Source: Lysobacterales bacterium
Lineage (GTDB): Bacteria > Pseudomonadota > Gammaproteobacteria > Xanthomonadales > Marinicellaceae
Direction of reading: 5' to 3'
Assembly: GCA_027067055.1 (NCBI GenBank)
Contig: JAMOMK010000114.1
Coordinates: 1-64,000 of the forward strand
DNA: 64,000 nucleotides
Positions 2,933 through 43,418 of this stretch are shown piece by piece. A program made the position numbers and the translations under genes. Under the pieces are notes generated by a model. That model was not told the origin of the DNA, ran no database searches, and was given only the letters and a program-made list of their open reading frames with translations. How positions within the stretch are numbered: the first letter of the stretch is position 1; every line of letters starts with the position of its first letter.

Positions 2933-5698
2933 TTACATATTCTCCAATTTAACCAACTGACCTTTTAGTTCTTCTAATTTATGCTCATTTGCTGCTAATG
3001 TATCTTTTTCTTTATTTACTACCGCCTCAGGTGCGGAGCTAACAAAGCGTTCGTTTTTGAGTTTGCCAGCACTTCGGGCGATTTCTTTATTGGCTGTTTC
3101 GATTAATTTATTAATGCGTGCTATTTCGGCATCGACATCAATTAAGCCAGCTAGTGGAATATTGACTTTCATTTCGCCAATCAGCGCTACGGCTGATTCT
3201 GGTGCTTGTTCGTCTTCTTTTAAGACTGAAATGTTTTCCAGTTGTGCCATGGTTTTTAATAAAGCTTCATTGTTGGCTAAGACACTTAAATCATTGGCAG
3301 AAGTATTTTCTAAAATTATACTTAAAGGTTTTCGCGGTGAGATATTCATTTCGCCACGAATTTGACGGACACCTAATACGGCAGCTTGTAACCACTGCAT
3401 GTCTTTGAATGATTTTCCATCCACCAATTTAGCATTGAATTCGGGAAATTGGGCAATCATTATGCTGTCACTTGGCAACTCTAGTTTTATTTTGAGTTCT
3501 TGCCAAATTTCTTCTGTAATAAACGGCATGATTGGGTGCAATAAGCGCAAGGCTTCATCTAACACATATAATAAGGTGTGTTGCACATTGTATTTGGTGT
3601 TTTCGTCTTGCTTGAGTAATGGTTTGGCAAGTTCCACAAACCAGTCACAATAGTTGTTCCAAATAAAGTCATAAATACATTGCGAGGCTAAATCCAAACG
3701 GAAGTTGTCTAAATGTTTGCGGTAATCAGCAATGCTGTTTTGCAATTGCGATAATATCCATAATTCGGCGGTTGAATTAGGCTTCCATTTTTGTGTATCC
3801 AGTTTAAAGTCTTCTGTGTTCATGAAAACAAAACGTGAGGCGTTGAATATTTTGTTGCAGAAATTACGGTAGCTTTCCAAACGGTTCATGTCAAAACGCA
3901 AGTGTCTGCCGTTGGTTGCAAGAGCTGCAAAGGTGAATCTTAATGCGTCACAACCATTGGGGTTGATTCCATCAGGAAATTCTTTGCGGGTAGCTTTTTC
4001 AACTTTGGCAGCCATTTTGGGTTGCATTAAACCACTGGTACGTTTTGTGATGAGTTCTTCTAACTCTATACCGTCAATAATATCAATTGGGTCTAAAACA
4101 TTGCCCTTTGACTTAGACATTTTTTGTCCTTGTGAGTCATTTATAAGTCCGTGAATATAAACCGTTTCAAATGGAATTTGATCCATAAATTTACAACCAG
4201 CCATAATCATACGCGCGACCCAGAAAAAGATAATGTCAAAACCTGTAACCAAAACTTGGGTTGGATAAAATTCTTTTAAACGGTCAGTCTCTTCAGGCCA
4301 TCCTAGAGTTGAAAAAGGCCAAAGGTTAGATGAAAACCATGTATCAAATACATCTTCATCTTGGGTGAGTTTGAAATCATTGGCTAAATTGTATTTTTCA
4401 CGTACCTTTTCTTCGGTTTCGGCTACATAAATTTTACCTTCTTCATCGTACCAAGCGGGAACTCGGTGTCCCCACCATAATTGGCGTGAGATACACCAAT
4501 CTTCTATGTTTTCCATCCACTGGTAATAAGTTTTATCCCAGTTTTCGGGAACAAATTTTATTTCACCTTCTTTAACAACATCCAGTGCTTTTTTTGCCAT
4601 GGTATCGACTTTGACATACCATTGGTCGGTGCGGTAAGGTTCGACAATACTGTGCGAACGATCACCACGAGGTACCATGACTTTATGGGGTTCAATCTTT
4701 TCCAGTAAGCCAAGTTCTTCAAAATCAGCAACAATTTGTTTACGTGCATCAAACCTATCCATGCCACGGTAAGCCTCAGGCATGTCGTCATTGATTTTGG
4801 CATCATCGGTTAAGACATTAATAATCTCTAAATCGTGGCGTTTGCCAATTTCTGCATCATTAAAGTCATGGGCTGGAGTAATTTTCACACAGCCTGTACC
4901 AAATTCTAAATCGACATAATCATCAGCAATAACCTTGATTTTACGGCCAGTTAAGGGTAAGTCAACGGTCTTGCCGACTAAATCAGTGTAACGCACGTCA
5001 TTTGGGTTAACGGCAATGGCAGAATCTCCCAACATGGTTTCAGGGCGAGTGGTAGCAACAATAACATAACCCTTACCATCGGTTCTAGGGTATTTCAGAT
5101 GCCATAAAAAACCATCTTCTTCAGCTGATTCGACTTCTAAATTTGATAATGCGGTTTGTAATACTGGGTCCCAATTGACTAATCTTTTGCCGCGATAAAT
5201 TAAGCCTTCATCGTATAAATCAATAAACTGCTTTTGTACCGCTTTGGATAAGCCTTCGTCCATGGTAAAGCGTTCAGTTTCCCAATCAACTGATGCACCC
5301 AGGCGACGAATTTGCGATTGAATATGCCCTGCGGATTTTTCTTTCCACTGCCAAACCTTATCCAAAAACTTTTCACGACCCAATTCAGTGCGCTTAATGC
5401 CATCGGCAAGCAATTGACGTTCGACCACCATTTGAGTGGCAATACCTGCATGGTCGGTACCACATTGCCACAAGGTTTTTTTGCCTTGCATACGGTTATA
5501 ACGGATAAGTACGTCCATAATAGTGTCTTGAAAAGCGTGCCCCATGTGTAAAGAACCTGTCACATTAGGTGGCGGCAGCATGATGCAAAAAGTCTCATCA
5601 CTTTTAGCGCCATTATCACTTGGGCTAAAGTAGCCTGCCTCTTCCCATTGCTTGTACCAACGGCTTTCTATGTCTTTTGGATTGTATTTTTCTATCAT
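2933..5698 (-). CDS. valS: valyl-tRNA synthetase
   Basis: 921 residues, class I aminoacyl-tRNA synthetase that charges tRNA-Val. The HIGH-type motif is seen as GSLHMGHAFQD (about residues 48-58) and the KMSKS loop as GQKMSKSKGN (about 533). The CP1 editing domain lies between them (with TTRPETMLGDSAIAVNP). The C-terminal anticodon-binding domain carries LHPIMPFITEEIWQ, and the last 70 residues form the ValS coiled coil (INKLIETANKEIARSAGKLKNE region). The start ATG lies only 12 bp from the inverted-repeat arm of a GxxExxY module, and no clear Shine-Dalgarno sequence is visible. In many gammaproteobacteria valS follows pepA-holC; here the island separates it from pepA. Confidence 0.97.
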   Translation of the reverse strand: MIEKYNPKDIESRWYKQWEEAGYFSPSDNGAKSDETFCIMLPPPNVTGSLHMGHAFQDTIMDVLIRYNRMQGKKTLWQCGTDHAGIATQMVVERQLLADGIKRTELGREKFLDKVWQWKEKSAGHIQSQIRRLGASVDWETERFTMDEGLSKAVQKQFIDLYDEGLIYRGKRLVNWDPVLQTALSNLEVESAEEDGFLWHLKYPRTDGKGYVIVATTRPETMLGDSAIAVNPNDVRYTDLVGKTVDLPLTGRKIKVIADDYVDLEFGTGCVKITPAHDFNDAEIGKRHDLEIINVLTDDAKINDDMPEAYRGMDRFDARKQIVADFEELGLLEKIEPHKVMVPRGDRSHSIVEPYRTDQWYVKVDTMAKKALDVVKEGEIKFVPENWDKTYYQWMENIEDWCISRQLWWGHRVPAWYDEEGKIYVAETEEKVREKYNLANDFKLTQDEDVFDTWFSSNLWPFSTLGWPEETDRLKEFYPTQVLVTGFDIIFFWVARMIMAGCKFMDQIPFETVYIHGLINDSQGQKMSKSKGNVLDPIDIIDGIELEELITKRTSGLMQPKMAAKVEKATRKEFPDGINPNGCDALRFTFAALATNGRHLRFDMNRLESYRNFCNKIFNASRFVFMNTEDFKLDTQKWKPNSTAELWILSQLQNSIADYRKHLDNFRLDLASQCIYDFIWNNYCDWFVELAKPLLKQDENTKYNVQHTLLYVLDEALRLLHPIMPFITEEIWQELKIKLELPSDSIMIAQFPEFNAKLVDGKSFKDMQWLQAAVLGVRQIRGEMNISPRKPLSIILENTSANDLSVLANNEALLKTMAQLENISVLKEDEQAPESAVALIGEMKVNIPLAGLIDVDAEIARINKLIETANKEIARSAGKLKNERFVSSAPEAVVNKEKDTLAANEHKLEELKGQLVKLENM

Positions 5699-5710
5699 AA
5701 GTTTTGTTTA

Positions 5711-5753
5711 GTAACGCAAAGAGCGCAAAGAAGGCGCAAAGTTTCGCAAAGTT
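5711..5753. repeat. left inverted-repeat arm of GxxExxY module 1
   Basis: A 43-bp arm made of repeated CGCAAAG-type units (GTAACGCAAAGAGCGC then AAGAAGGCGCAAAG then TTTCGCAAAG). Its reverse complement is found with a few small differences at 6141-6185, on the other side of the GxxExxY gene. The arm ends 2 bp from the gene's stop codon and begins 12 bp from the valS start. Confidence 0.85.
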
Positions 5754-5754
5754 T

Positions 5755-6135
5755 TTATAGGTTATTAACTAATCTTTTTATTCCTGATTTTAATAGTGAT
5801 TCATTAAAGTTGATAAGCAGTCCTAGTTTATAGTTTCCAAGTTTTAAGTAAGTTAAAAGTTGTGCTTTGTGGCTTGGAGTTAATTTTTCTACAGCTTTTA
5901 ATTCTATGATCACCTTCTTCTCAACCAACAGATTGATTCGATAGCCGTATTCTAATTTTATTTTTTTATAATTGACAGGGCAAGGAAGTTCTTTTTCAAC
6001 TTTAAGTCCAGATTTTAATAATTCATAGTGTAAACACTCTTGATAAGCTGATTCTAACAAACCAGGGCCAAGGGTTTTATGAACCTCAATCGCACAACCA
6101 ATAATTATATTTGAAATGTTATTTTCATCAATCAT
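5755..6135 (-). CDS. GxxExxY protein (complete copy)
   Basis: 126 residues of the GxxExxY family (PDDEXK-like nuclease fold, function unknown). The defining segment is seen as IGCAIEVHKTLGPGLLESAY (about residues 12-31), where GLLESAY carries the G-x-x-E-x-x-Y signature. It is followed by a conserved strand region (INLLVEKKVIIELKAVEKL, with the E-x-K of the fold) and a C-terminal HKAQLLTYLKLGNYKLGLLINFN block. The gene fills almost all of the space between two inverted-repeat arms. A second, broken copy of the same family with its own arms lies at 12,689-13,238. Members are often found near repeats or in rRNA insertions in other bacteria, but no experimental role is known to me. Confidence 0.85.
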   Translation of the reverse strand: MIDENNISNIIIGCAIEVHKTLGPGLLESAYQECLHYELLKSGLKVEKELPCPVNYKKIKLEYGYRINLLVEKKVIIELKAVEKLTPSHKAQLLTYLKLGNYKLGLLINFNESLLKSGIKRLVNNL

Positions 6136-6140
6136 AAATT

Positions 6141-6185
6141 ACTTTGCGAAACTTTGCGCCTCCTTCTTCGCGCCCTTTGCGTAAC
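6141..6185. repeat. right inverted-repeat arm of GxxExxY module 1
   Basis: Imperfect reverse complement of 5711-5753: ACTTTGCGAAACTTTGCGCC, then CTTCTTCGCGCCCTTTGCGT. It lies 5 bp upstream of the GxxExxY start codon, so any promoter for that gene must overlap or lie beyond the arm. Confidence 0.85.
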
Positions 6186-6304
6186 GCTTTTAAATTATGG
6201 CATTATCCAATATTTGTTTTAGCTTTAATATATTTTTTTGATGAATAAGTTGATTTTATTAAAGAAGCTCTGCAAGAGTTGAAAGATGCTAGGAAAACCT
6301 AGAA

Positions 6305-7879
6305 CCCTAATCCCGATATAGAAAAGTCAAAACAAGCAGTAAGCCTTGGTGTATAATGGTTTTACTACAAATCAAAAATCACCCAACGGGTGAAACCAAG
6401 GCTTATGAATATATTACCACACAACTTATCAACAACGCATGAACTTTTAACATCCAGAGGTGGATTGCTTGCAATAGCTACTCTAATGCAAGAACTAAAC
6501 CTCACAAACCTAATCGACAAACATTTTGTTTAACCCAAGAGCAACAGAGGTTTTAAACCCTCCGTATTTTTAAATTCTCTTATACTAATGCAGCACGAAG
6601 GTGGAATACGTTTAGATGACCTGAAGTACCTTAAAAAAGATGAAGCCATAACAAAATTGCTGGGATTGAAGGACATTCCACAACCTGACTCTGTTGGCGA
6701 TTGGTTACGTAGAATGGGAACATCTGGAGTCGATGCCATATCATTAATCAATAGAGAATTATGTCGTATTGCACTCAAAGAAACCAATGGTATCACCCTA
6801 GATATAGATGCATCGGAAATCATCAGCAATAAAAAGGAAGCAAAAAAGACCTACAAATATAACCAAGGCTATATGCCAATGGTTGGTCACATAGCAGAAA
6901 TAAACCATGTGATCCAAACTGATTTTCGAGAAGGCAATGTTGCACCAAAAACTGAAAATTTAGAATTTATAAAAAAATGTGTGAGCAACCTACCAAAAGG
7001 AGTAAAACTCAAGAACTTAAGAATTGACTGTGCAGGCTATCAAAAGTCCATTATAAAATATTGCGATGAAGAAGAAATCCACTTTGCAATTAGAGCTATA
7101 AAGAGTAAATCATTAACAAGTTACATAAACAATTTAGATGAAACCCAGTGGGATCCCGTCATTAAATCAGACGGTAAAGCATCTCAAATAAGTAGCCACA
7201 GAACAACCCATAATATTTCAGATTATAAAAAACCTTTCACATTGATTATTCAAAGAACAGCAAAATCAGGACAACTGGAGCTAAATATTGGTTCTCCAAG
7301 TGATGAAATAGAGTCAAATGGCTATGTTTACCGTGCAATAGCAACATCATTAGATCACATGAGTGATAGTGAAAGCATCAGTTGGTATGGTATGAGAGCT
7401 GAAAAGTCTGAGAATAAGATTAAAGAATTAATGCTGGATTTTGGTGGAGCGCACATGCTGATGAATTTAAAAAAAGCCGTGCCAAAGCAGTTAGGTTGAG
7501 GATTTATGCCATGGCAGCCAAGCTAATCAAACATTCACGTCAATACAAATTGAAATTACAAAATTTCAATCAAAGCTTATTGTTACAAATAATAGACAAA
7601 ATTACACGCTATGGATTTTACCCTATCTTAGAATAGCTACTTATTAAGTAGTCGCACAAACAAGTGAGCAAAACCAGTCAGCCAATATCTACCTATGCCT
7701 AGAATTTGTCAAATGTTGGTATAAGCCGATGATTTTGTAAATATATATGAAAATTTTTGAAATTAAGACACATAACATCGAATTTCAAATAATTTAAGTT
7801 TGAATTGTAACTCGAAAACCCAAGTTTCTCTAAAAACCAAGATTTGATAGAGAATTTAAGTTCTATATCGGGATTTGGG
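6305..7879 (+). mobile_element. decayed IS1380-family insertion sequence
   Basis: The element is delimited by 19-bp terminal inverted repeats: CCCTAATCCCGATATAGAA at 6305-6323 and the reverse complement of CCCAAATCCCGATATAGAA at 7861-7879 (one mismatch). A 5-bp direct repeat TAGAA flanks it at 6300-6304 and 7880-7884, as expected for target-site duplication by this family. The only gene inside is a broken IS1380-type transposase. The ends are intact although the transposase is dead, so it could only move if a related enzyme is present elsewhere. Confidence 0.85.
6405..7636 (+). pseudogene. IS1380-family transposase, broken
   Basis: The frame begins MNILPHNLSTTHELLTSRGG and meets an in-frame TAA at 6531-6533. 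It then continues in the same frame through SNRGFKPSVFLNSLI and the open stretch 6588-7499. Family motifs include LDIDASEIISNKKEAKKTYK, GYMPMVGHIAE, TDFREGNVAP and the C-terminal ISWYGMRAEKSENKIKELMLDFG (YREK-like). After that the usual block of about 50 residues seems deleted. The reading then shifts frame near 7478, where AKAVRLRIYAMAAKLIKHS continues to a TAG at 7634-7636. Stop codon, frameshift and deletion together make it inactive. Confidence 0.85.
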
Positions 7880-7908
7880 TAGAACCTGAATTAGAACTAA
7901 ATCAAAAT

Positions 7909-7946
7909 TTTACATTCCAATTGTTGTTGTTGTTGTTGTGTATAAT
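7909..7946 (+). promoter_or_regulatory. candidate promoter of DGR target 1 with TTG repeat in the spacer
   Basis: A perfect -10 hexamer TATAAT lies at 7941-7946. A good -35 match TTTACA is at 7909-7914, but the spacer is 26 bp. That spacer contains six tandem TTG units (7921-7938). Loss of three units would give the ideal 17 bp. The predicted transcript would start about 27 bp before the ATG at 7980. No better -35 is seen at the normal distance. Promoter activity is a prediction. Confidence 0.45.
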
Positions 7947-7979
7947 TCTGTCTATCAAACGGACAAACGGATAACATCA

Positions 7980-8741
7980 ATGAAAAAATTATTATTGACA
8001 CTGCTCATCACAAGCACAACTTTATATGCTCAGAATGTAATATTTGGAAATGGTTTTGAACAACCCGTTATTCAAATGGTTAAACTCAACGACACAGGTA
8101 TTACATGGGGTGGCGATTACCCATCAGGTAATAATGCAACTTGTACCAGTAATATAGCATCCCCTCAAGATTGTAACCAAGGGCGAGATTTTACCCACAA
8201 TGATGATACTGATGGACATGCAGGTTTTAGCTTTACCAAACTCGATGCAAACGGCACAGCCTTAGTTGACCAAAGTGTTGATTATGCCACTACACCTTGG
8301 GCATGTGTACAAGACAATGTTACAGGCTTGGTATGGGAAGTAAAAACCACCACCGCAGGCATTCACAATAAAGACAATACCTACCAATGGGGCGGAGATA
8401 CGGCGATTGGCAAAGGTCACCCAAATGCACAAGGCACTTATTACGACCCAAGTTGGAATGAATTGGTGCAAGGCTCAAATACTGATAATCTTTGTGGGTT
8501 TAATAACTGGCGAGTACCTACAGTTGATGAGTTATCTGGTATAGCGAATCAAGGCACATTCAATCCTGCAATCGATACAAACTATTTTCCAAACACAGTA
8601 TCATCAAAGTTTTGGTCGTCCTCGCCTATTGCTAACTATCCTTACTATGCGTGGATTGTCTACTTCGACTACGGCGGTGTCTACGGCTTTATTCGTGACA
8701 ATGGCAATCGTGTGCGTTTAGTTCGTAGTCTCGGACAGTGA
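7980..8741 (+). CDS. DGR target protein 1: exported DUF1566 protein carrying VR1
   Basis: 253 residues from the ATG at 7980, chosen because it opens a clean signal peptide (MKKLLLTLLITSTTLYAQ). A GTG frame start at 7938 would overlap the -10 box. The body is a DUF1566 (Lcl C-terminal, C-type-lectin-like) protein: VTGLVWEVK at about 123-131, NNWRVPTVDELSGIA, YFPNTVSSKFWSSSP. The last 43 codons are the variable repeat VR1 (8610-8741), in which 12 of the 15 template AAY codons have become Y, D, G, F or I. The mutated residues sit where C-type-lectin DGR targets expose their ligand-binding surface. It is the first gene of the cassette and is followed by avd. Near its N-terminus is IFGNGFE, similar to the C-terminal tail of the protein at 54,390. 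Confidence 0.9.
   Translation: MKKLLLTLLITSTTLYAQNVIFGNGFEQPVIQMVKLNDTGITWGGDYPSGNNATCTSNIASPQDCNQGRDFTHNDDTDGHAGFSFTKLDANGTALVDQSVDYATTPWACVQDNVTGLVWEVKTTTAGIHNKDNTYQWGGDTAIGKGHPNAQGTYYDPSWNELVQGSNTDNLCGFNNWRVPTVDELSGIANQGTFNPAIDTNYFPNTVSSKFWSSSPIANYPYYAWIVYFDYGGVYGFIRDNGNRVRLVRSLGQ
8610..8741 (+). repeat. DGR variable repeat VR1
   Basis: 132 bp at the 3' end of target gene 1, aligned without gaps to the template at 9294-9425. There are 18 differences at template adenines (A to T, G or other). The only other change is GAG to CAG in the last sense codon. The final 27 bases before that codon (CGTGTGCGTTTAGTTCGTAG...) are identical to the template including their adenines, marking the initiation-of-mutagenic-homing (IMH) end. 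A T-rich tract follows the stop codon. Confidence 0.95.
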
Positions 8742-8762
8742 TTTTTCTTTTTTTATAATTTT

Positions 8763-9143
8763 ATGAATAAGAAGTTTCCAATATACAGAGATGCAAACCA
8801 GTTAATTATAGACACTGAGTTAACGGTTCGGCAATTTCCACGTTATCACAAATATACTTTGGGTAGCGAGATGCGTAGCTCTGCCTATACTATTTTAGAA
8901 AATATATCCTTAGCTATCAATCAGCCAATAAGCATGATAAAAGATAAAAAAGACTTAATTCAGCAAGCCCATAGAGAAACAGAAAAATTTAAAATAAAAA
9001 TTCAGCTAGCAAAGTCCTTAAATTTGTACACAAATTTTAAGAGTTTTGAAACCATTGCCAGAGGAGTGGTGTCAGTTTCAAAACAATGTTTTGCATGGCA
9101 ATATAAATTGCAACACCACAAGATGCGCCAACAGGGGCTATAA
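8763..9143 (+). CDS. avd: Avd-like four-helix-bundle protein of the DGR
   Basis: 126 residues, strongly helical and basic. It resembles the bacterial accessory variability determinant (bAvd) and the related four-helix-bundle family: YHKYTLGSEMRSSAYTILENI near residue 27, then a basic third helix (RETEKFKIKIQLAKSL) and a final helix with ARGVVSVSKQCFAWQYKLQ. In characterised DGRs Avd forms a pentamer that binds the reverse transcriptase and the template RNA and is needed for mutagenic cDNA synthesis. The gene lies 21 bp after target gene 1 and just before the template repeat, the classic place. No damage is visible. Confidence 0.88.
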   Translation: MNKKFPIYRDANQLIIDTELTVRQFPRYHKYTLGSEMRSSAYTILENISLAINQPISMIKDKKDLIQQAHRETEKFKIKIQLAKSLNLYTNFKSFETIARGVVSVSKQCFAWQYKLQHHKMRQQGL

Positions 9144-9293
9144 ATTATGTTTATATTTAAAACCTCTTGTGCGTTTTTCACTGTGTGCCTTGTTCGCCTG
9201 TATAACCATATAGGTAATATAAAACAAGCAAATTACCCGAGGTTACTTGGGATATTTGTAAGTAGAATAAGTAACAAGGAAAATGCCCATTGG
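9144..9293 (+). ncRNA. leader region of the DGR template RNA (predicted)
   Basis: The 150 bp between avd and the template repeat have no convincing gene. Two inverted repeats can be seen: GGTAAT (9213-9218) with ATTACC (9232-9237), and GTTACT (9243-9248) with AGTAAC (9270-9275). In studied DGRs the RNA flanking the template is structured and binds Avd and reverse transcriptase. These stems could serve that purpose, but this is inferred from position only. Confidence 0.4.
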
Positions 9294-9425
9294 TTTTGGT
9301 CGTCCTCGCCAATTGCTAACAATCCTAACAATGCGTGGATTGTCAACTTCAACAACGGCAATGACAACAACAATAATCGTGACAATAACAATCGTGTGCG
9401 TTTAGTTCGTAGTCTCGGAGAGTGA
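9294..9425 (+). ncRNA. DGR template repeat (TR)
   Basis: 132 bp matching VR1 and VR2 without gaps. It holds 15 AAC/AAT codons in the frame used by the VRs; adenine mutation of AAY can give many residues but no stop codon. Every TR-VR difference except the GAG/CAG at the 3' end is at an adenine here. It stops one base before the reverse transcriptase ATG. An open frame of 92 codons (9147-9425) runs through it in the VR frame, but the N-rich product and unrelated first half indicate template RNA and not a protein gene. With VR2 the similarity extends five bases further upstream (from 9289). Confidence 0.95.
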
Positions 9426-9426
9426 A

Positions 9427-11442
9427 ATGAGGATTTCGTATCAACAGATTTATCAAGCTGAACAAAAATGCAGTAAATCAAAACGCAAGGGTTCACAATG
9501 CCAGCGTTTTAATGCTGATTTAATTGATAACTTGTTTGAAATCCAGCAGGTGTTGCAATCTAAAACCTATGTGCCTAAACCCATGCGTGTATTTGTCGCA
9601 GACAATGGCTCAAAACCACGTGAGATTTATGCACCGCATTATTATGATCGTGTGATACACCATATACTCGTGCCAAGACTAGAAAAAATAATCGCTCATA
9701 AGTTTATCCATGATTCGACAGCCAATCAAAAAAACAAAGGCACTCATTTTGCAGTAGCACGATTGCAAAAAATGATGAGAAAGCCGTCATTGCGAGGAGC
9801 TTTACAACAATCTCAAAGTAACCCGTCATTGCGAGGAGGAACGACGCGGCAATCTCCAAAATCAAGTTCCGTACTAAATAAATTTCCATACTGCACTCGC
9901 AATGATGAAAGTGGACCGACTTGTAAGATGGGCCCCGCCCATTATTTTAGTTTTGTTGATTCACCAAGTTATCAGGATGATGGGCAGGGCCCATCTTACG
10001 TAAAACCCAATAAACTTAAACATGCCCTACGGCTAGTGCAAGGAGGGCAGCCATTGCAATTTCGCAAAACTAGCGTTGTGTCCAACAGATTGCCACAGTC
10101 GTGCCTCCTTCGCAATGACAGTGATTTTGATGCTGGTAATGATGAGTGTGTTTTAACCCAGAAAAACAAAACCTATTACCTCCAACTAGACATTCACAAC
10201 TTCTTTTATAGCATCGATAAAAAAATACTCATGCTGATATTAGTCAAGCATATAAAGGTAGCTATAAAGCAGAAAAAAATCACTAGTGATACTGGCAGAG
10301 ATTATTATTGGTTGTGTCAACAAATTCTAAAGCGAAACAATAAAACCCAAATAACACACAATGTTGAATTGCCTTTTATTAAACAACTACATAATATTGA
10401 TAATGATAAAGGTTTACCAATCGGTAACTTGACCAGTCAATTTTTTGGCAATGTTTACCTTAATGAGCTAGATCAATTTGTTAAGCATCAATTAAAAGTT
10501 AAACACTATGTCAGATATGTTGATGATTTTGTATTGTTGTCAGATAACCCACAACAATTAGAAAAATGGCAAACACAAATACAAAAGTTTTTGGACAAAA
10601 AATTATCCTTGCGCTTAAAAAAAGTTGCTAAACCCAAAGACATTGCCCAAGGCGTTGATTTTTTAGGCTATATTATTAGACAGCATTACAATCTGGTTAG
10701 GCGACGCATATTGGGTAATATGCACCAAAGGCTTGCTTTATGGTACAAAGAAAATAATCAAAAAGTATGTAATGGTTCAGTTTTACATTTGCCTAAAGCA
10801 GCTTCAGATAAAATTGACAGTGTTTTTGCCAGTTATATGGGTCATTTCAAACATGCTAAAAGCCATAAAATCACCCAACAAAAGTTTAATCAATTTAAAT
10901 TGTTGGATTTATTGTTTTATTATCATGAGGGGCAGTTTAAGAGTAAAAGGCATACAAAAAAAGCCACAAAACTAATGCAGCAATGGAGCTATTTTAAATT
11001 TCATTATCAACATTTTGTGCTATTGATGCAGGTAGGGTGCTATTTCGTGGTATTGAAACAATCCATTTCGTCACTTTTTTTTGATAGGTGTTCCCAAATA
11101 GAACATCAGAACCAGAATGGACAACCGTCATTGCGAGGAGGAACGACGCGGCAATCTCCTAAATTAAGTTCTGTACTAAACAGATTTCCACGCGGCACTC
11201 GCAATGATGAAAGTGGCCCATCTTACCTATTTTTTGATAGAATACTCAAACAATCAAAACTTAAACCCAATTGGATAGAATTTCATCAAAAAAAACTATC
11301 CTTTGTTTTAAAAACATTACAACAACAATCGATTTCTTATGTGGTAGCTACCCAACAAGGCTATGTCAACAATAAGTTAAGAAAACGCAAAGTTTCACAA
11401 ATCTATATCTCAAATAATTTAAACCCAAAGGACGCAACATGA
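9427..11442 (+). CDS. DGR reverse transcriptase with in-frame repeat insertions
   Basis: 671 residues, about 300 more than usual for DGR reverse transcriptases. The N-terminal domain (YQQIYQAEQK; PREIYAPHYYDRVIHHILV), motif A (YYLQLDIHNFFYSIDKK), motif B (GLPIGNLTSQFFGNVYLNEL), the catalytic YVRYVDDFVLL and the following GVDFLGYIIRQH are all present and in frame. Extra length comes from repeat-derived segments at about residues 119-243 (between the N-terminal part and motif A) and about 567-597 (after the thumb). Both contain PSLRGGTTRQSPK. The enzyme would copy TR RNA with adenine errors and pass the cDNA to the VRs. The stop overlaps the ATG of target gene 2 (ATGA). Confidence 0.93.
   Translation: MRISYQQIYQAEQKCSKSKRKGSQCQRFNADLIDNLFEIQQVLQSKTYVPKPMRVFVADNGSKPREIYAPHYYDRVIHHILVPRLEKIIAHKFIHDSTANQKNKGTHFAVARLQKMMRKPSLRGALQQSQSNPSLRGGTTRQSPKSSSVLNKFPYCTRNDESGPTCKMGPAHYFSFVDSPSYQDDGQGPSYVKPNKLKHALRLVQGGQPLQFRKTSVVSNRLPQSCLLRNDSDFDAGNDECVLTQKNKTYYLQLDIHNFFYSIDKKILMLILVKHIKVAIKQKKITSDTGRDYYWLCQQILKRNNKTQITHNVELPFIKQLHNIDNDKGLPIGNLTSQFFGNVYLNELDQFVKHQLKVKHYVRYVDDFVLLSDNPQQLEKWQTQIQKFLDKKLSLRLKKVAKPKDIAQGVDFLGYIIRQHYNLVRRRILGNMHQRLALWYKENNQKVCNGSVLHLPKAASDKIDSVFASYMGHFKHAKSHKITQQKFNQFKLLDLLFYYHEGQFKSKRHTKKATKLMQQWSYFKFHYQHFVLLMQVGCYFVVLKQSISSLFFDRCSQIEHQNQNGQPSLRGGTTRQSPKLSSVLNRFPRGTRNDESGPSYLFFDRILKQSKLKPNWIEFHQKKLSFVLKTLQQQSISYVVATQQGYVNNKLRKRKVSQIYISNNLNPKDAT
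9783..10155 (+). repeat. nested palindromic repeats inside the reverse transcriptase gene
   Basis: An insertion of roughly 370 bp that keeps the reading frame. It contains a partial repeat (9784-9815), a 92-bp copy (9823-9914) and a 20-bp inverted pair with one mismatch (GTAAGATGGGCCCCGCCCAT at 9923-9942; partner at 9980-9999). It ends with an oppositely oriented fragment near 10,086-10,127 ending CTTCGCAATGAC. The 92-bp unit starts GTCATTGCGAGGAGGAACGA and ends with CTCGCAATGATG, so its ends are complementary. Exact borders are approximate. Confidence 0.8.
11125..11216 (+). repeat. second 92-bp palindromic repeat inside the reverse transcriptase gene
   Basis: This copy matches 9823-9914 closely over its full length and is read in the same frame, giving PSLRGGTTRQSPK, SSVLN, F-P, TRNDESGP in both places. 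Its ends (GTCATTGCGAG and CTCGCAATGAT) are complementary. It is followed by CCCATCTTAC, the same sequence as one arm of the inverted pair at 9980-9999. It lies after all catalytic motifs. Confidence 0.85.
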
Positions 11443-11957
11443 AAGCCATTATAATAACATTAATCATCATAAATTTATCTATCTATCAAAAAGCCAATGC
11501 AGTATGTGAGGCGTACATAACTGACGAATGGCCTGACTCTCGCTATACAGTTACAGATATATCTGGCGACAACGTGGTTACAGATAATCAGACAGGTTTA
11601 ATGTGGAAACAATGCCCTCAAGGTTTAACTGGTTCAATCTGCGATACAGGTAGTGTAACAACTCACACATGGCAACAGGCATTAGATTTGGCTAGTATAG
11701 AAGACTTTGCTGGTTTTACTGATTGGCGAGTGCCTAACCAAAAGGAGTTGCGCACAATTGTTGCCAGAAATTGTTATAGCCCAAGCATCAATACCAATAT
11801 TTTTCCTAATACGCCAAGTAATTGGTTTTGGTCGTCCTCGCCTTTTGCTGACGGTCCTGACTTTGCGTGGATTGTCTACTTCGGCAACGGCGATGACGGC
11901 GGCAATGGTCGTGACGTTGGCGATCGTGTGCGTTTAGTTCGTAGTCTCGGACAGTGA
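11439..11957 (+). CDS. DGR target protein 2: exported DUF1566 protein carrying VR2
   Basis: 172 residues with a signal peptide (MKAIIITLIIINLSIYQKANA, cleavage likely after ANA). The DUF1566 core follows: VVTDNQTGLMWKQ, TWQQALDLA, FTDWRVPNQKELRTIV, NIFPNTPSNWFWSSSP. The last 43 codons form VR2 (11,826-11,957), with 13 of 15 template AAY codons altered, mostly to G, D, F, V and Y. The start codon overlaps the reverse transcriptase stop by four bases (ATGA), so the target is translationally coupled to the enzyme. Cysteines at C22, C50 and C59 of the precursor may form disulfides in the periplasm or outside. It is shorter than target 1 and shares little with it outside the domain. Confidence 0.92.
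   Translation: MKAIIITLIIINLSIYQKANAVCEAYITDEWPDSRYTVTDISGDNVVTDNQTGLMWKQCPQGLTGSICDTGSVTTHTWQQALDLASIEDFAGFTDWRVPNQKELRTIVARNCYSPSINTNIFPNTPSNWFWSSSPFADGPDFAWIVYFGNGDDGGNGRDVGDRVRLVRSLGQ
11826..11957 (+). repeat. DGR variable repeat VR2
   Basis: 132 bp aligned without gaps to TR 9294-9425, with 23 differences, all at template adenines, plus the same GAG to CAG change seen in VR1. VR1 and VR2 also differ from each other at many of these positions, so each has been diversified separately. The 3' 27 bases before the changed codon are invariant. The stop codon is followed by a T-rich tract like that after VR1. Confidence 0.95.
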
Positions 11958-12036
11958 TTTTTTCTTTTTTTGTTTTAATAGTGAGATATTAAATAAGTTG
12001 ACATTAATTTACATAATAACTACAATGTAATTATTA

Positions 12037-12326
12037 GTGATTTAATATTTCAATGGGATGAAAATAAAAATAGAAGCAATCAAAGGAAACATGGCATTTC
12101 ATTTGCAGAGGCTAAAACGGTATTTTTTGATCATTTAGCTAGGCTGATTCCTAATCCAGATCATTCAATTGGTGAAGAGCGATTCATTTTGATGGGTTTG
12201 AGTCAAAAATATCGTTTACTCACTGTTTGTCATTGTGAAAGAGATGGCGATACCATAAGAATAATTTCAGCAAGAAAAGCAGATAAATTTGAAACAAAAC
12301 AATACCAAGGTGACGATTATGCGTGA
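12037..12326 (+). CDS. brnT: BrnT-family toxin (start unclear)
   Basis: The frame reads IFQWDENKNRSNQRKHGISF (from 12,045), then AEAKTVFFD, DHSIGEERFILMGLS, YRLLTVCHCERDGDTIRIIS and ARKADKFE. This is the full BrnT pattern (F-x-W-D-x-x-K, N-x-x-K-H-G-I-S-F, R-I-I-S-A-R). BrnT is a RelE-like RNase toxin. No ATG, GTG or TTG opens this frame. The nearest GTG (12,037) would need one extra base to read in frame, so the gene either uses a rare ATA/ATT start or has lost a base. It ends at TGA 12,324-12,326 and overlaps brnA by 8 bp. It starts 80 bp after the DGR target 2 gene. Confidence 0.75.
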
Positions 12327-12528
12327 CAGTTATGATTTTTCAGACTCAATTAAAAATCCTTATACCAAAAGGTTAAAAAAACAAATTACTATTCGTATTG
12401 AAGAAGACACGATTACTTACTTTAAGCAAATGGCAGAAGATAAAGGTGTGCCTTATCAGAGTTTAATCAATTTATATTTAAGGGATTGCGCAACAAAACA
12501 CAGAGAAATTGAGGTTATTTGGCGTTGA
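12319..12528 (+). CDS. brnA: BrnA-family antitoxin
   Basis: 69 residues from the ATG at 12,319, chosen because an AAGG lies 8-11 bases upstream; a longer frame from 12,289 lies wholly inside brnT. The sequence has the BrnA ribbon-helix-helix: KKQITIRIEEDTITYFKQMA followed by GVPYQSLINLYLRDCA. BrnA binds the BrnT toxin and represses the operon. The toxin-first order and short overlap are standard for brnTA. It looks intact. Confidence 0.87.
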   Translation: MRDSYDFSDSIKNPYTKRLKKQITIRIEEDTITYFKQMAEDKGVPYQSLINLYLRDCATKHREIEVIWR

Positions 12529-12611
12529 GTAAAAGTATGAAACAAGAATATTATTTTAGTAAAACCAAACAATTGACGGAATAAATCGTGCCACTACAAC
12601 TATGCTTATGC

Positions 12612-12640
12612 ATCCCCATGTGGAGCCATGGGAACGAGGA
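12612..12640. repeat. dispersed hairpin repeat fragment
   Basis: CCCCATGTGGAGCCATGGGAACGAG is related to the segment at about 2777-2805 (CCCACGCGGAGCATGGGAAC). Each can fold into a short stem (CCCA/TGGG). It lies just before the left arm of GxxExxY module 2. Confidence 0.45.
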
Positions 12641-12653
12641 ATCATTTTTTTTG

Positions 12654-12703
12654 TAAGGAACGCAGAGATTCGCTGAGGAATCGCAGAGTTACGCAGAATT
12701 TCT
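12654..12703. repeat. left inverted-repeat arm of GxxExxY module 2
   Basis: The arm reads TAAGGAACGCAGAGATTCGC then TGAGGAATCGCAGAG, and its best part is the reverse complement of 13,264-13,289. It has the same tandem-unit style as module 1 (CGCAGAG in place of CGCAAAG) but a different sequence. The stop codon of the GxxExxY reading (12,689-12,691) lies inside this arm. Confidence 0.8.
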
Positions 12704-13238
12704 TTCGTTAATAATTCTTGTTATTCCTTGTTTTAATGTTTTGACATTAAAGTTTAATAACAAGCCGAGTTTAAATTTCCCTAATTTTAAATAGGTTAAA
12801 AGTTGGGATTTATGAATGTCTGTTATTCTATCAACAGCCTTTACAGACCGTGAAAGTATTCTGATGACGAGTAAAAATGGTATAAAATGCGCTACTATTC
12901 GTTGAAAAACTTGGAATTAGCTAGCTAGTCACAGCGTTTTCCGCCTTTATTAGCAAATTTTCTACTCATTTTTCTTTCGCCCCACAATACTTTCACAGTC
13001 TGTTTAGTTCTAGCACAATTGAATTTTCTACTAATATATCAATTCTAAAACCTCTACCAAGGTTTAAATTTTTATATCTCAAAGGTATGAAAACTTCTTT
13101 TTGAACATTGAGATTCGCTTGTTGAAGTTCATAAATCAAACAATCTTGATAGGTGGATTCTAATAACCCTGGCCCAAGTTGTCTATGAACTTCAATGGCA
13201 CAACCAATAATTTTACTTGTTATTGTATTTTTATCCAT
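12689..13238 (-). pseudogene. GxxExxY protein, interrupted by a MITE
   Basis: The N-terminal part (13,238 down to 13,004) reads MDKNTITSKIIGCAIEVHRQ, LGPGLLESTYQDC, KNLNLGRGFRIDILVENS, IVLEL. The rest resumes beyond the insertion as KAVDRITDIHKSQLLTYLKL, GKFKLGLLLNFN and ends at the stop 12,689-12,691. Removing the 161-bp insertion and one copy of its TTTA duplication restores one continuous GxxExxY frame. The gene is therefore a recent loss of an otherwise intact relative of the copy at 5755-6135. Confidence 0.88.
12843..13003. mobile_element. MITE 1, inserted in a GxxExxY gene
   Basis: 161 bp with terminal inverted repeats (ACAGACCGTGAAAGTATT at the left; ACAGACTGTGAAAGTATT as reverse complement at the right). 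An apparent TTTA target duplication partly overlaps these ends. It has no gene. The internal core (GGCGGAAAACGC, TTTTTCAACGAA and ACTCGTC in reverse complement) is clearly related to MITE 2 at 46,384-46,543, although the outer ends differ. Confidence 0.85.
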
Positions 13239-13289
13239 AAATTTCTCTGTGTGCCTCTGCGCGTCCTCTGCGAATCTCTGCGTTCCTTA
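13239..13289. repeat. right inverted-repeat arm of GxxExxY module 2
   Basis: Imperfect reverse complement of 12,654-12,703 (TCCTCTGCGAATCTCTGCG then TTCCTTA). It starts immediately upstream of the GxxExxY start codon and ends 7 bp before the pepA stop codon, so the module was placed directly behind pepA. Confidence 0.8.
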
Positions 13290-13296
13290 AAGCTCT

Positions 13297-14763
13297 TTAT
13301 TTAGAACTTTCGTTAATTAAGTATTGCACCATCATGGCGACTGGTCGTCCGGTTGCGCCTTCTTTTTTGTTATTCCAAGCAGTTCCTGCTATATCTATAT
13401 GTGCCCAGTTGACATCTTCACAGAAGCGGCTTAGGAAACAACCTGCTGTAATTGAACCACCAGCGAAACCACCAACGTTTTGCATATCAGCAAATGTGGT
13501 ATCAATTTGTTTTTGGTATTCATCCCATAAAGGCAATTGCCATGCTTTGTCATTAACTTGGATGCCAGCATTTAAAATATCTTGTGGTAATTGAGTCTGT
13601 TTTGACATGACGGCAGAGGCGACATGGCCTAATGCAATAACACAAGCCCCTGTTAATGTGGCTAAATCAATCAACACTTGTGGTTTGTACTCTTGTGCGT
13701 AAGTGAGCGCATCGCATAAAATCATACGGCCTTCAGCATCTGTATTTAACACTTCAATGGTTTTGCCTGAATAACTTGTGACAACATCGCCTGGTCGGTA
13801 AGCATCTCCATCAGGCATGTTTTCAACAGCTGGGACAATCATGACTAAGTTAATCGGCAATTGCATTTCGGCAACAGCGACAAAAGTTCCAAAAACAGTT
13901 GCAGCTCCGCACATATCGTATTTCATTTCATCCATATTAGGACCTGGTTTTAATGAGATGCCGCCTGTGTCAAATGTTATGCCTTTACCGACTATAACAT
14001 GTGGCTTTTGGGTTTTCTTTGCACCTGTGTATTTTAAAACAACCATTTTTGGTGAGTTTCGTGAACCACGAGCAACAGCGAGCAATGAACCCATTTTGAG
14101 TTTTTGCATTTTCTTTTCATCTAAAATGGTGAGTGAACAATTATCGTATTTTTTGGCAATACCTTTGGCGTGCTTTGCTAAGTAATCGGGATTGCATATA
14201 TTGGGAGGTAAATTTCCTAGTGCGCGGGTGGTCTCAACGCCTGTTGCTATGGCAGCAGCATGTTTAACTGCGTTAGCTGATTTTTTATCAGCATACATGG
14301 ACATTGATGTTAGGCTGTGTTTATCACCTTTTTTGAAAATTTTTGTGACTTCATAACGGTACGTAGCATAGGATGCGGCGATTGCACTAATTTTTGTGAC
14401 AGTTGCTGAATCAAAATCAATATAGGCTAATGAAGATATGTAGTTACTTACCGTTTTTACTGGAGTCTTAACAACGGCCTTTACTGCTCTTATTGTTGCC
14501 GATTGAATAGTGCCTAGAACGCATTTATTTTTATCACCAAGTCCAACAAGAATAACTCTTTGGCCAGAATCTGCAAATAATGTTAAAGTTTCACCTGATT
14601 TGCCCGAGAAGTCTTTTGTCTTGATACGTGCACTGATTTGTTTATTTATTATTTCATCTGCTTCTTTTGCTATGGCGTTTAATTTGGCATCTGAGAAAAT
14701 CCCAATAAATAAAGCATCAGCTTTTGATTTGATTGGGGTCATCAATGATGAGGTGATTTTCAT
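13297..14763 (-). CDS. pepA: leucyl (cytosol) aminopeptidase PepA
   Basis: 488 residues from the ATG at 14,763. I prefer this start over one four codons upstream because GGAG lies 7 bases before it (GGAGAAACGCATG). The C-terminal M17 catalytic domain has the zinc and catalytic segments VGKGITFDTGGISLKPG, MKYDMCGAATVFG and the signature VLNTDAEGRMILCDALTY (NTDAEGR). The domain before it starts near TRALGNLPPNICNP. PepA is a cytoplasmic di-metal hexameric aminopeptidase and in E. coli also a DNA-binding cofactor of Xer recombination. It is divergent from lptF, as in many gammaproteobacteria. The usual downstream holC is missing. Confidence 0.96.
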   Translation of the reverse strand: MKITSSLMTPIKSKADALFIGIFSDAKLNAIAKEADEIINKQISARIKTKDFSGKSGETLTLFADSGQRVILVGLGDKNKCVLGTIQSATIRAVKAVVKTPVKTVSNYISSLAYIDFDSATVTKISAIAASYATYRYEVTKIFKKGDKHSLTSMSMYADKKSANAVKHAAAIATGVETTRALGNLPPNICNPDYLAKHAKGIAKKYDNCSLTILDEKKMQKLKMGSLLAVARGSRNSPKMVVLKYTGAKKTQKPHVIVGKGITFDTGGISLKPGPNMDEMKYDMCGAATVFGTFVAVAEMQLPINLVMIVPAVENMPDGDAYRPGDVVTSYSGKTIEVLNTDAEGRMILCDALTYAQEYKPQVLIDLATLTGACVIALGHVASAVMSKQTQLPQDILNAGIQVNDKAWQLPLWDEYQKQIDTTFADMQNVGGFAGGSITAGCFLSRFCEDVNWAHIDIAGTAWNNKKEGATGRPVAMMVQYLINESSK

Positions 14764-14902
14764 GCGTTTCTCCATAATATTAAATGTTTATGTTAAGATT
14801 CGCTTTTTTGGAATAGTTGGTGCTATTTCTTAACTGGTTAAGCATTCTAAACATTAAATGTGCTTAGTGCCAGTATTTAATGAACGCTAAAGAGATTTTA
14901 TA

Positions 14903-15970
14903 TTGCAAATATTAGGTAAATATCTTAGGAAAGAAACACTTATAGCATTTTTTGCTATTTTATTGGTGTTATTAGTGTTAACTATTGGAAATTCGTTCGC
15001 GGGAACTTTGCGTGCGATTGCTCGGGGTGTGTTGCCAGCATCTATGGTCTATGTGGAACTTGGCTTGCGCAGCATAGATGCGTTAACAATTTTATTGCCT
15101 TTGGCATTGTATTTAGCCGTTCTTTTTAAGTTGGCCCAATTATACCGCAATCATGAAGCAGTTATCTTTCACACTTCTGGTATCAGTAGTATGAAGATGT
15201 TAAAAATGTACCTCCCTTTGATGAGTTTCTTTTTTGTTTTCTTGTTGCTTCTATCGGTTTTTGTTCTTCCTGTTGTCTCTCGCACATCTGAAAAATTAAC
15301 CTTAGCTGCTAGTAAAAACATTTCACTAATGGGGCTGAAGGAAGGTGTCTTCCAGGAAATATCTGGTAGTAATTCAGTGATATATGTTCGAAAATTAAAT
15401 GTTGAAGAAAATAGGTTGGAAAATATATTTCTTAACATTAGGCATGAGGACAGAGTTGATACATTAACGGCAGAATACGGTTATCAGTATGAAGATGAGC
15501 AAACTAAAGAGCGCTACATATCTTTGTATAATGGTTTTCGTAACGAGGGTGTGCCAGGTAGTAAAATGTATAATTTAATGAAGTTTGAACGTAATGACAT
15601 AAAGTTACCTCGCTTAAAAGGCAAGTCAGTTGATGTGGATGAAAAAGGCAAATCATTTTTTGAATTAATGAGTTCTGACCGGTTAGTTGATAAAGCAGAA
15701 ATTCACCATCGTTTATCTCCGGCATTTAATATTGTCGTTCTGGTTATATTGGCACTATCACTTTCGAAAACATCTCCTCGAGATGGCAAGTATGGCAGTT
15801 TGATTTTGGGTTTGTTGGTATTTACGGCTTATATTAATCTTTTATTTATTGCAATTTCCATGATTGAACAAGGCAAAATCCCTTTTTGGTTGGGAGTGTG
15901 GTGGGTTCATGCACTATTTCTTGCTTATGGGTTTTACCGAATTCATAAAGCCGACAGTTCTAATAGGTAA
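14903..15970 (+). CDS. lptF: LPS export permease LptF
   Basis: 355 residues starting at TTG (14,903) with AAAGAGA upstream. The N-terminus has two hydrophobic helices (LIAFFAILLVLLVLTIGNSF; ALTILLPLALYLAVLFKL), and a third lies near 100-120. A periplasmic beta-jellyroll follows (about 130-265) and three C-terminal helices close the protein. This is the LptF/LptG layout. LptF and LptG form the membrane part of the LptB2FGC transporter that lifts LPS from the inner membrane. It is divergent from pepA and followed after 5 bp by lptG. Confidence 0.93.
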   Translation: MQILGKYLRKETLIAFFAILLVLLVLTIGNSFAGTLRAIARGVLPASMVYVELGLRSIDALTILLPLALYLAVLFKLAQLYRNHEAVIFHTSGISSMKMLKMYLPLMSFFFVFLLLLSVFVLPVVSRTSEKLTLAASKNISLMGLKEGVFQEISGSNSVIYVRKLNVEENRLENIFLNIRHEDRVDTLTAEYGYQYEDEQTKERYISLYNGFRNEGVPGSKMYNLMKFERNDIKLPRLKGKSVDVDEKGKSFFELMSSDRLVDKAEIHHRLSPAFNIVVLVILALSLSKTSPRDGKYGSLILGLLVFTAYINLLFIAISMIEQGKIPFWLGVWWVHALFLAYGFYRIHKADSSNR

Positions 15971-41808: not shown

Positions 41809-42229
41809 ATGCCCAACAAAAAACCAAACCCGTAGGTTGGCGTTGAGGTACGAAACCCAACACCAAAGCCCAAACCACCCCCATAAACAAACCAAACCAA
41901 AAATCCAAACCAACCGATAAACCAACCAACCCCAAACCCCGCAAATGTTGGGCTTCGCTCCGCTCCGCACCAACCTACATTGGTATTCCAAACGAAACCC
42001 AAATCAAAACCTAAAAATAACTTAAACATGGATTGTCGCCTACGCGGCAATGACGAGTTGCTTGGGGCTACTCTGTCGTTCGGTATCATGGCAGAATTGA
42101 TATTGAAGTATGGCGATACATGCAAAGCAATAATATATAGCCACAGTATGTGCAAATTGTGTATACTGCTAATGCGTGCGTACACGCAAATAATTTAACT
42201 TTTGATTTAGAAAAAACGGTATTAGACTA
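41809..42229. repeat. intergenic dispersed-repeat region with a G-depleted tract
   Basis: About 420 bp without a convincing gene. 41,830-41,940 is nearly free of G on the + strand (many AACC, CCAAA), so the minus strand is G-rich. A 55-bp block at 41,924-41,978 recurs at 43,364-43,418. A fragment near 42,028-42,056 (GATTGTCGCCTACGCGGC) resembles the dispersed repeat family found inside the reverse transcriptase. A long frame on the minus strand is low-complexity and not taken as a gene. Confidence 0.6.
41924..41978 (+). repeat. 55-bp direct repeat, copy 1
   Basis: Starts AACCAACCCCAAACCCCGC and ends GCACCAACCTAC. Matches 43,364-43,418 with two mismatches in 55 bases. The inner TTGGGCTTCGCTCCGCTC is a type of dispersed unit often seen next to accessory genes. 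The pair brackets the RhuM gene and an hsdS remnant. Confidence 0.85.
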
Positions 42230-43273: not shown

Positions 43274-43365
43274 TGGAAAAGCACAATACATATAAAGATA
43301 GCGGAATTGAATGGATTTATGGCATGAGATACATTAACATGGATTACCCTCCACCCAACAAATAA
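43273..43365 (+). pseudogene. hsdS: fragment of a type I restriction specificity gene (hsdS), 5' end only
   Basis: Starts by TAATG overlap with the RhuM stop. The first residues read KHNTYKDSGIEWIYGMR. YKDSGIEWIG is the almost invariant N-terminus of many HsdS proteins (KYKDSGIEWIGEIPEHW). After about 20 residues the similarity ends and the frame runs into the 55-bp direct repeat and stops at 43,363-43,365. No hsdM or hsdR is present, so this is the remains of a deleted type I restriction-modification locus. Confidence 0.75.
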
Positions 43366-43418
43366 CCAACCCCAAACCCCGCGAATGTTGGGCTTCGCTC
43401 CGCTCTGCACCAACCTAC
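43364..43418 (+). repeat. 55-bp direct repeat, copy 2
   Basis: Second copy of 41,924-41,978 (two mismatches). It lies exactly where the hsdS similarity is lost, so recombination or insertion at this repeat may have removed the rest of the gene. Confidence 0.85.

What the first reader, a model, noticed from the sequence alone, without database searches (positions are those of the whole stretch)
7909..11980. Complete diversity-generating retroelement with two diversified targets
Seen: TR (9294-9425), VR1 (8610-8741) and VR2 (11,826-11,957) are 132 bp each and align without gaps. VR1 has 18 and VR2 has 23 substitutions, all at TR adenines, apart from a single GAG/CAG difference fixed in both VRs. 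The 27 bases before that codon are invariant even at adenines, which fits an IMH segment. An Avd-like gene and a YVDD reverse transcriptase lie between. Known: this is the defining pattern of DGRs (Bordetella phage BPP-1 type). Both targets are exported DUF1566 proteins, so the product is probably a variable surface or secreted binding protein.
Basis: partly seen in the sequence, partly recalled or inferred. Interest (0 to 1): 0.93.

Follow-up and report, generated by a model that had tools for sequence, protein, structure and literature searches.

The report
Gene-diversifying retroelement with two targets
This stretch holds a known kind of genetic machine, a diversity-generating retroelement, that rewrites the ends of two neighbouring genes for exported proteins in a marine bacterium; it is ordinary in kind, but its copying enzyme carries unusual in-frame inserts of repeat DNA, and related genomes hold broken and fossil versions of it.

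Summary
TR 9294-9425, VR1 8610-8741 and VR2 11826-11957 align ungapped; 18 of 19 and 23 of 24 differences fall on TR adenines, the exception being one G/C at position 127 in both VRs (p 2.6e-10 and 6e-14). The RT's best solved relative is the BPP-1 DGR RT, by sequence and by predicted fold; 80 of 88 relatives scanned carry an adenine-biased repeat pair. It is a diversity-generating retroelement (DGR) with two Lcl_C (DUF1566) targets, a common type.

(2) Same-genus genomes hold two more DGRs with the same signature, one RT relic, fossil VRs and 11 DGR-less pairs of the two target genes. TR states specific to this genome are in both its VRs, suggesting retrohoming after the split from G010, when the RT probably already carried inserts. 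(3) No GC hairpin follows the VRs; a T-rich tract does. Present activity is untested.

The parts
7980..8741 (+). Target gene 1, exported Lcl_C (DUF1566) protein, 253 aa from the ATG (the ORF list starts it at GTG 7938)
   Evidence: Pfam Lcl_C E 1.1e-28 on the 267-aa ORF; signal-peptide-like start by inspection only
8610..8741 (+). VR1; 3' invariant (IMH-like) part 8707-8741
   Evidence: 18 of 19 differences at TR adenines
8742..8766 (+). T-rich tract directly after VR1 (18 T in 25), no exact stem of 6 bp or more in 60 nt
8763..9143 (+). avd-like gene, 126 aa
   Evidence: PHROG Avd E 1e-13; Pfam bAvd 35.7 bits against cut-off 40; NCBIfam Avd 33.3 bits against 80
9144..9293 (+). Leader between avd and TR; lies in an ORF (9147-9425) but shows no coding constraint
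   Evidence: pS 0.251, pN 0.235 against G010
9294..9425 (+). TR, ending 1 nt before the RT start codon; 3' part (IMH*-like) 9391-9425
   Evidence: 113 of first 114 bases identical in G010
9427..11442 (+). Reverse transcriptase, 671 aa; YVDD at 10516-10527
   Evidence: PDB 8ub7 E 6.7e-26; Foldseek E 9.2e-18; PHROG RT E 3.4e-87
9784..10161 (+). Insert 1 in the RT, codons 120-245, two CGTC-type repeat heads (9785, 9824) and a GC palindrome (9923-9999)
   Evidence: linker -2 to 5 residues in 90 of 90 relatives; heads; palindrome; 0 stops in frame, 4 and 17 in the other frames; pLDDT under 50 for 136-242
10984..11064 (+). First half of the MutS-domain-I-like C-terminal module
   Evidence: alignment with L054, where MutS_I scores E 6.5e-12; no Pfam match in the window's own sequence
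11088..11240 (+). Insert 2 in the RT, 153 nt, with one CGTC-type head (11126), bounded by 11-bp direct repeats at 11077-11087 and 11230-11240
   Evidence: pLDDT under 50 for 565-612
11257..11406 (+). Second half of the MutS-domain-I-like module
   Evidence: alignment and predicted strands and helices on both sides of insert 2
11439..11957 (+). Target gene 2, exported Lcl_C protein, 172 aa, start overlaps the RT end
   Evidence: Pfam Lcl_C E 4.7e-35
11826..11957 (+). VR2; 3' invariant part 11923-11957
   Evidence: 23 of 24 differences at TR adenines
11958..11982 (+). T-rich tract directly after VR2 (19 T in 25); only an AT-only 7-bp stem in 60 nt

Best explanation
A chromosomal diversity-generating retroelement of a marine gammaproteobacterium. 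TR RNA is copied by the RT with Avd into cDNA with errors opposite adenines, and the cDNA replaces the VR at the 3' end of either of two exported Lcl_C genes, anchored by the invariant 3' part, which differs from TR at position 127. Shown: the anatomy; adenine specificity in six TR-VR pairs from three genomes; purifying selection on the RT parts that could be compared; TR states specific to this genome present in both of its VRs. Inferred: the BPP-1-like route, continued copying after the RT gained its repeat inserts, and a role of the products as variable surface or secreted binding proteins.
For: Adenine bias 18/19 and 23/24 here, 22/27 and 25/26 in G010, 29/30 and 25/26 in G008. Best solved relative is the BPP-1 DGR RT. 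80 of 88 RT relatives scanned have an adenine-biased repeat pair. Apart from position 127, none of the non-adenine positions differs in either VR. TR position 105 and the 3-nt longer end are specific to this genome and shared by its TR, VR1 and VR2. dN/dS 0.10 (119 codons) and 0.26 (71 codons) for RT parts against G010.
Against: No population or expression data. Inserts of 126 residues and 51 codons in the RT could impair it. In G010 the RT frame stops at insertion site 1 and VR1 has a nonsense codon. No GC hairpin after the VRs, although BPP-1 needs one for efficient retrohoming (PMC3240598, passages read). Avd scores below two curated cut-offs. The shared TR/VR states could also come from recombination between repeats.
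Confidence: 0.93

Rival explanations
1. The DGR worked in the past but is dead in this genome because repeat DNA disabled its RT; the VRs are frozen.
For: Two large inserts in the RT, low model confidence there; [quoted passage not shown] G009 keeps only an RT relic.
Against: The 671-codon frame is open, with other frames of the inserts full of stops; no drift at non-adenine positions in either VR except position 127; RT parts under purifying selection.
Confidence: 0.3
2. The repeat-derived segments are not passive: they tune the RT or its expression, for example as a hairpin in the messenger or a flexible protein segment.
For: Palindromic repeats lie in the RT C-terminal part in all four RT loci of the genus (G000, G008, G010, G009 relic) and are in frame in the three whose frame can be followed. 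3 of the 11 repeat heads found in this genome lie in this one gene; the other 8 lie in frames of at most 102 codons.
Against: Insert content differs between species. One 28-codon unit has pN 0/62 against pS 3/22, but a 40-codon stretch has pN 6/95 against pS 0/25: no consistent coding constraint. Repeats inside genes are known in other bacteria, and their spread over unrelated proteins was taken there as an argument against functional constraint (PMC3733652, passages read).
Confidence: 0.12
3. No retroelement activity: three related gene ends diverged by ordinary selection or gene conversion.
For: DGR-less paralogs also differ from the TR somewhat more at its adenines (p 1e-5 to 0.02 in four compared).
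Against: In those paralogs 22 to 31 differences fall at non-adenine positions, here one; Avd-like gene and DGR-type RT present.
Confidence: 0.02

Closest known systems
Bordetella phage BPP-1 DGR (mtd-avd-TR-brt)
   Same: Target gene with 3' VR, avd, TR and RT in this order and on one strand; adenine-specific differences; RT is the best solved match.
   Different: Two targets, one on each side; Lcl_C targets; RT with a MutS-I-like C-terminal module and two repeat inserts; TR 1 nt from the RT start; T-rich tract instead of the GC hairpin that BPP-1 needs (PMC3240598, passages read).
DGRs with several VRs and DUF1566 targets
   Same: One TR with two VRs in two DUF1566/Lcl_C genes; in one survey 271 of 948 DGRs had multiple VRs and DUF1566 was the commonest target domain named (PMC6642488, passages read).
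   Different: Repeat inserts in the RT; not reported in the passages seen.
CGTC-tagged REP elements, including rickettsial RPE repeats (PMC3733652, passages read)
   Same: Short palindromic repeats beginning CGTC that can lie in frame inside protein genes; clusters encoding 43 to 82 amino acids are reported there.
   Different: Here they lie inside a DGR reverse transcriptase, at matching places in related species; no assignment to a numbered family was made.

Membership tests
Diversity-generating retroelement | TR and VR of about 100-150 bp with differences confined to TR adenines | tested here: met
   18/19 and 23/24 here; four further pairs in G010 and G008
Diversity-generating retroelement | RT of the DGR type with intact catalytic motif | tested here: met
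   YVDD; 8ub7 best match; 80 of 88 relatives scanned have an adenine-biased pair. No tree was built
Diversity-generating retroelement | Avd or another accessory gene | tested here: met
   PHROG Avd E 1e-13, below the curated cut-offs of Pfam and NCBIfam
Diversity-generating retroelement | Invariant 3' part of VR and TR with a small fixed difference (IMH and IMH*) | tested here: met
   positions 98-132 with one difference at 127 in both VRs; function not tested
Diversity-generating retroelement | GC-rich hairpin downstream of VR (efficient retrohoming in BPP-1; [quoted passage not shown]
   none after either VR here nor after four VRs of G010 and G008; found after both VRs of L053. An aid to efficiency in BPP-1, not a defining feature of the family
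Diversity-generating retroelement | Observed mutagenic retrohoming | not testable with these tools
   no reads or cells; only sequence traces
CGTC-tagged REP element | Palindrome beginning CGTC, interspersed in the genome | tested here: met
   11 heads with up to 1 mismatch, 0 for the reversed control pattern; inverted partner CTCGCAATGATG in the same unit by inspection

The most novel reading that the evidence does not exclude
A DGR reverse transcriptase has absorbed palindromic repeats as in-frame, extruded segments and stayed a working mutagenic enzyme through at least one species split, while repeated loss of the avd-TR-RT cassette across the genus left paired Lcl_C genes behind as a frozen archive of formerly diversified binding proteins.
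Probability: 0.3. Interest if true: 0.65.

Novelty: new member of a known kind. Interest (0 to 1): 0.42.

Why it matters
As a DGR with two Lcl_C targets it adds one case to a large family. Its worth lies in the comparison set: one genus with an open-frame, a probably interrupted and a relic DGR, fossil VRs, and DGR-less pairs of the same target genes, so that use and loss of a DGR can be followed. The repeat-laden RT is a natural test of where a DGR RT accepts large insertions, which matters for those who engineer these enzymes.

Tried and rejected
Odd error spectrum: no A-to-C among 41 changes in this genome, 7 of 142 in the six genus pairs. In 80 relatives the counts are G 616, T 370, C 152: same order, C somewhat rarer here (Fisher p 0.003), selection not excluded. 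Not treated as a finding.

TR abutting the RT as an oddity: rejected. In the 72 of 80 viral loci with a same-strand pair the TR ends 11-31 nt before the RT match in 71 and 91 nt before it in one.

TR ORF as a protein gene: rejected; the part before TR has pS 0.251 and pN 0.235. RT 5' coding part as a hidden RNA spacer: no extra synonymous conservation in codons 1-40 (pS 0.643). No Rfam family at gathering threshold in 5000-15000.

TR as uniquely conserved: weakened. TR pS is 0.045 against 0.25-0.72 in other stretches, but the RT C-terminus has 0.184 and two insert stretches 0.136 and 0, so conservation between G000 and G010 is patchy.

Hairpin as a general rule: in the rough scan of ten stretches from other relatives, GC stems of 6 bp or more appeared in 4 (both L053 VRs, L056, L058) and not in 6; VR ends were mapped only for L053.

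Target 1 structure: pLDDT 48, too poor; no fold search was run on it.

MutS-like module: no Pfam match in the window's own C-terminus; the name rests on relatives (L054 E 6.5e-12; L055 E 0.0086, below cut-off). That MutS-like accessories are known in DGRs is recalled; that paper is not held and a phrase search found none. In G008 the second half of the module seems to lie before the thumb, on weak matches; left open.

Repeats in a DGR RT in print: searches (none; none; three papers, listing only) showed no such report; open-licence papers only.

Organism: G010 is a gammaproteobacterial MAG from a Southwest Indian Ridge vent chimney (PMC9769843, passages read). The window's own genus was not named.

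Full report
Observation. VR1 differs from TR at 19 positions and VR2 at 24; all but position 127 (G to C in both) are TR adenines. With 40 adenines in 132 positions the hypergeometric probabilities are 2.6e-10 and 6e-14, and the two VRs differ from each other only at TR adenines (19 of 19). Positions 98-126 are the same in all three copies, four TR adenines included.

Genes. Both VRs are 3' ends of Lcl_C (DUF1566) genes, exported by inspection of their starts. Between them lie an avd-like gene (PHROG Avd E 1e-13; below curated cut-offs in Pfam and NCBIfam), the TR, and an RT of 671 aa. The RT's best solved relative is the BPP-1 DGR RT 8ub7, by sequence (E 6.7e-26) and by predicted fold (E 9.2e-18, TM 0.85 over the target). 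Of 88 RT relatives scanned (80 viral loci, the best of more than 543, and 8 of the 10 loci of the class search; L053 and L060 left out) 80 have an adenine-biased repeat pair nearby. Membership in the DGR family is secure.

Repeat inserts in the RT. Insert 1, codons 120-245 (9784-10161), lies between RLQKMMRK and KNKTYYLQLD. In 90 of 90 relatives measured the linker there is -2 to 5 residues (L060 left out because its match lacks the N-terminal part). It holds two heads CGTCATTGCGAGGAG and a GC palindrome. Insert 2, 11088-11240, carries a third head and is bounded by 11-bp direct repeats 153 nt apart, like a target-site duplication. Eleven heads with up to one mismatch occur in the genome, none for the reversed control. 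The three in this RT lie in frames over 600 codons long, the other eight in frames of at most 102. Both inserts lack stops in the RT frame, while the other two frames hold 4 and 17, and 3 and 5. AlphaFold gives most of the RT core high confidence and both inserts pLDDT under 50 (136-242, 565-612), with strands and helices of the C-terminal module on both sides of insert 2. In L054 that module scores as MutS domain I (E 6.5e-12), in L055 below cut-off (E 0.0086) and in L053 not at all; the window's own sequence gives no match.

Same-genus comparison. An RT (E up to 1e-20) was found in 3 of 61 genomes, all three among the 11 of the genus, this one included. In G010 the TR has 113 of its first 114 bases identical to ours while the whole aligned region is about 81% identical. 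Differences at TR adenines are 22 of 27 (VR1) and 25 of 26 (VR2) in G010, 29 of 30 and 25 of 26 in G008. G010's VR1 has a nonsense codon at repeat position 6 and three more non-adenine changes besides the one shared by both its VRs at 123. In the assembly G010's RT stops 22 codons after insertion site 1, in a 133-bp sequence found at five places in that genome, each at a contig end, so misassembly is possible. Another G010 contig carries the RT C-terminus with an in-frame two-unit repeat array and VR2. G009 keeps an RT C-terminal piece with repeats and a VR2-like gene with 11 of 13 differences at TR adenines in 70 nt; a broken target gene in G003 shows 12 of 16 in 73 nt. These look like fossil VRs. 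Eleven loci in 6 of the 11 genomes hold a long-type and a short-type Lcl_C gene side by side (one, L051, with frame breaks) and no avd or RT match. L053, from another family, has the order long Lcl_C, avd-like (by inspection; no Pfam match), a third copy of the repeat end, RT, short Lcl_C. I read most DGR-less pairs as cassette loss; gain into an existing pair is not excluded. In the four DGR-less paralogs that could be compared base by base the adenine excess is weak (p 1e-5 to 0.02) and may reflect ordinary variability of the same surface.

Has the insert-bearing RT worked? TR position 105 is G here and C in TRs and VRs of G010 and G008, and the 3-nt longer 3' end is likewise specific to this genome; both states are in TR, VR1 and VR2. 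The simplest reading is transfer from TR to both VRs after the split from G010. Insert 2 has the same right boundary in G010, and at site 1 both species continue with CGTCAT after the same codons, so the inserts probably predate the split; independent insertion at favoured sites is possible. RT parts beside the inserts are under purifying selection (dN/dS 0.10 over 119 codons, 0.26 over 71). This favours a working RT with inserts without proving it.

Setting and differences. After the VR stop codons no GC stem was found in six VRs of the genus (two have AT-only stems); 13-19 of the next 25 bases are T, against 3-16 in the ten DGR-less gene ends caught by the same search (one-sided p 0.0017; three TRs and the G009 relic left out). 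L053 has GC hairpins 4 nt after both VRs. In G001, G002 and G006 valS and pepA lie next to each other; here about 7.6 kb lie between them, with transposase, BrnT/BrnA-like and nuclease-like genes beside the DGR. In the stretches held, the G010 and G008 DGRs share none of these neighbours, and nucleotide matches to the window's flanks were limited to 73 nt just before target 1 in G010. The locus thus sits in a variable island and its place differs within the genus.

Verdict. Papers: passages read in PMC6642488, PMC3733652, PMC12875486, PMC9769843, PMC8144416 and PMC3240598 (abstract included in the last); other papers seen as listings only.

Noticed in passing
window 12042-12528 (+): BrnT-like (E 1.6e-29) and BrnA/CopG-like genes, a possible toxin-antitoxin pair directly after target 2.
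   Followed up: partly
window 12654-13289: 44-nt inverted repeats (86% complementary) around a GxxExxY-type nuclease-like gene (PDDEXK_3) that seems broken by a small element; 12849-13007 is 95% identical to a stretch in G003.
   Followed up: partly
window 6588-7499 (+): IS1380-type transposase ORF upstream of target 1, 155 bits against a curated cut-off of 180, so perhaps truncated.
   Followed up: no
L049 1185-1968 (G000 contig C23): A second, frame-broken paralog of target 1 in the same genome, first 154 residues 79% identical.
   Followed up: no
L014 769-2484 (G008 RT): RT of 571 aa whose C-terminal part holds a different palindromic repeat (also seen in the G009 relic) and in which the two halves of the MutS-like module seem to be in swapped order.
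   Followed up: partly
window 41913-41978 and 43353-43418: Two 66-nt direct repeats, 89% identical, 1440 nt apart.
   Followed up: no
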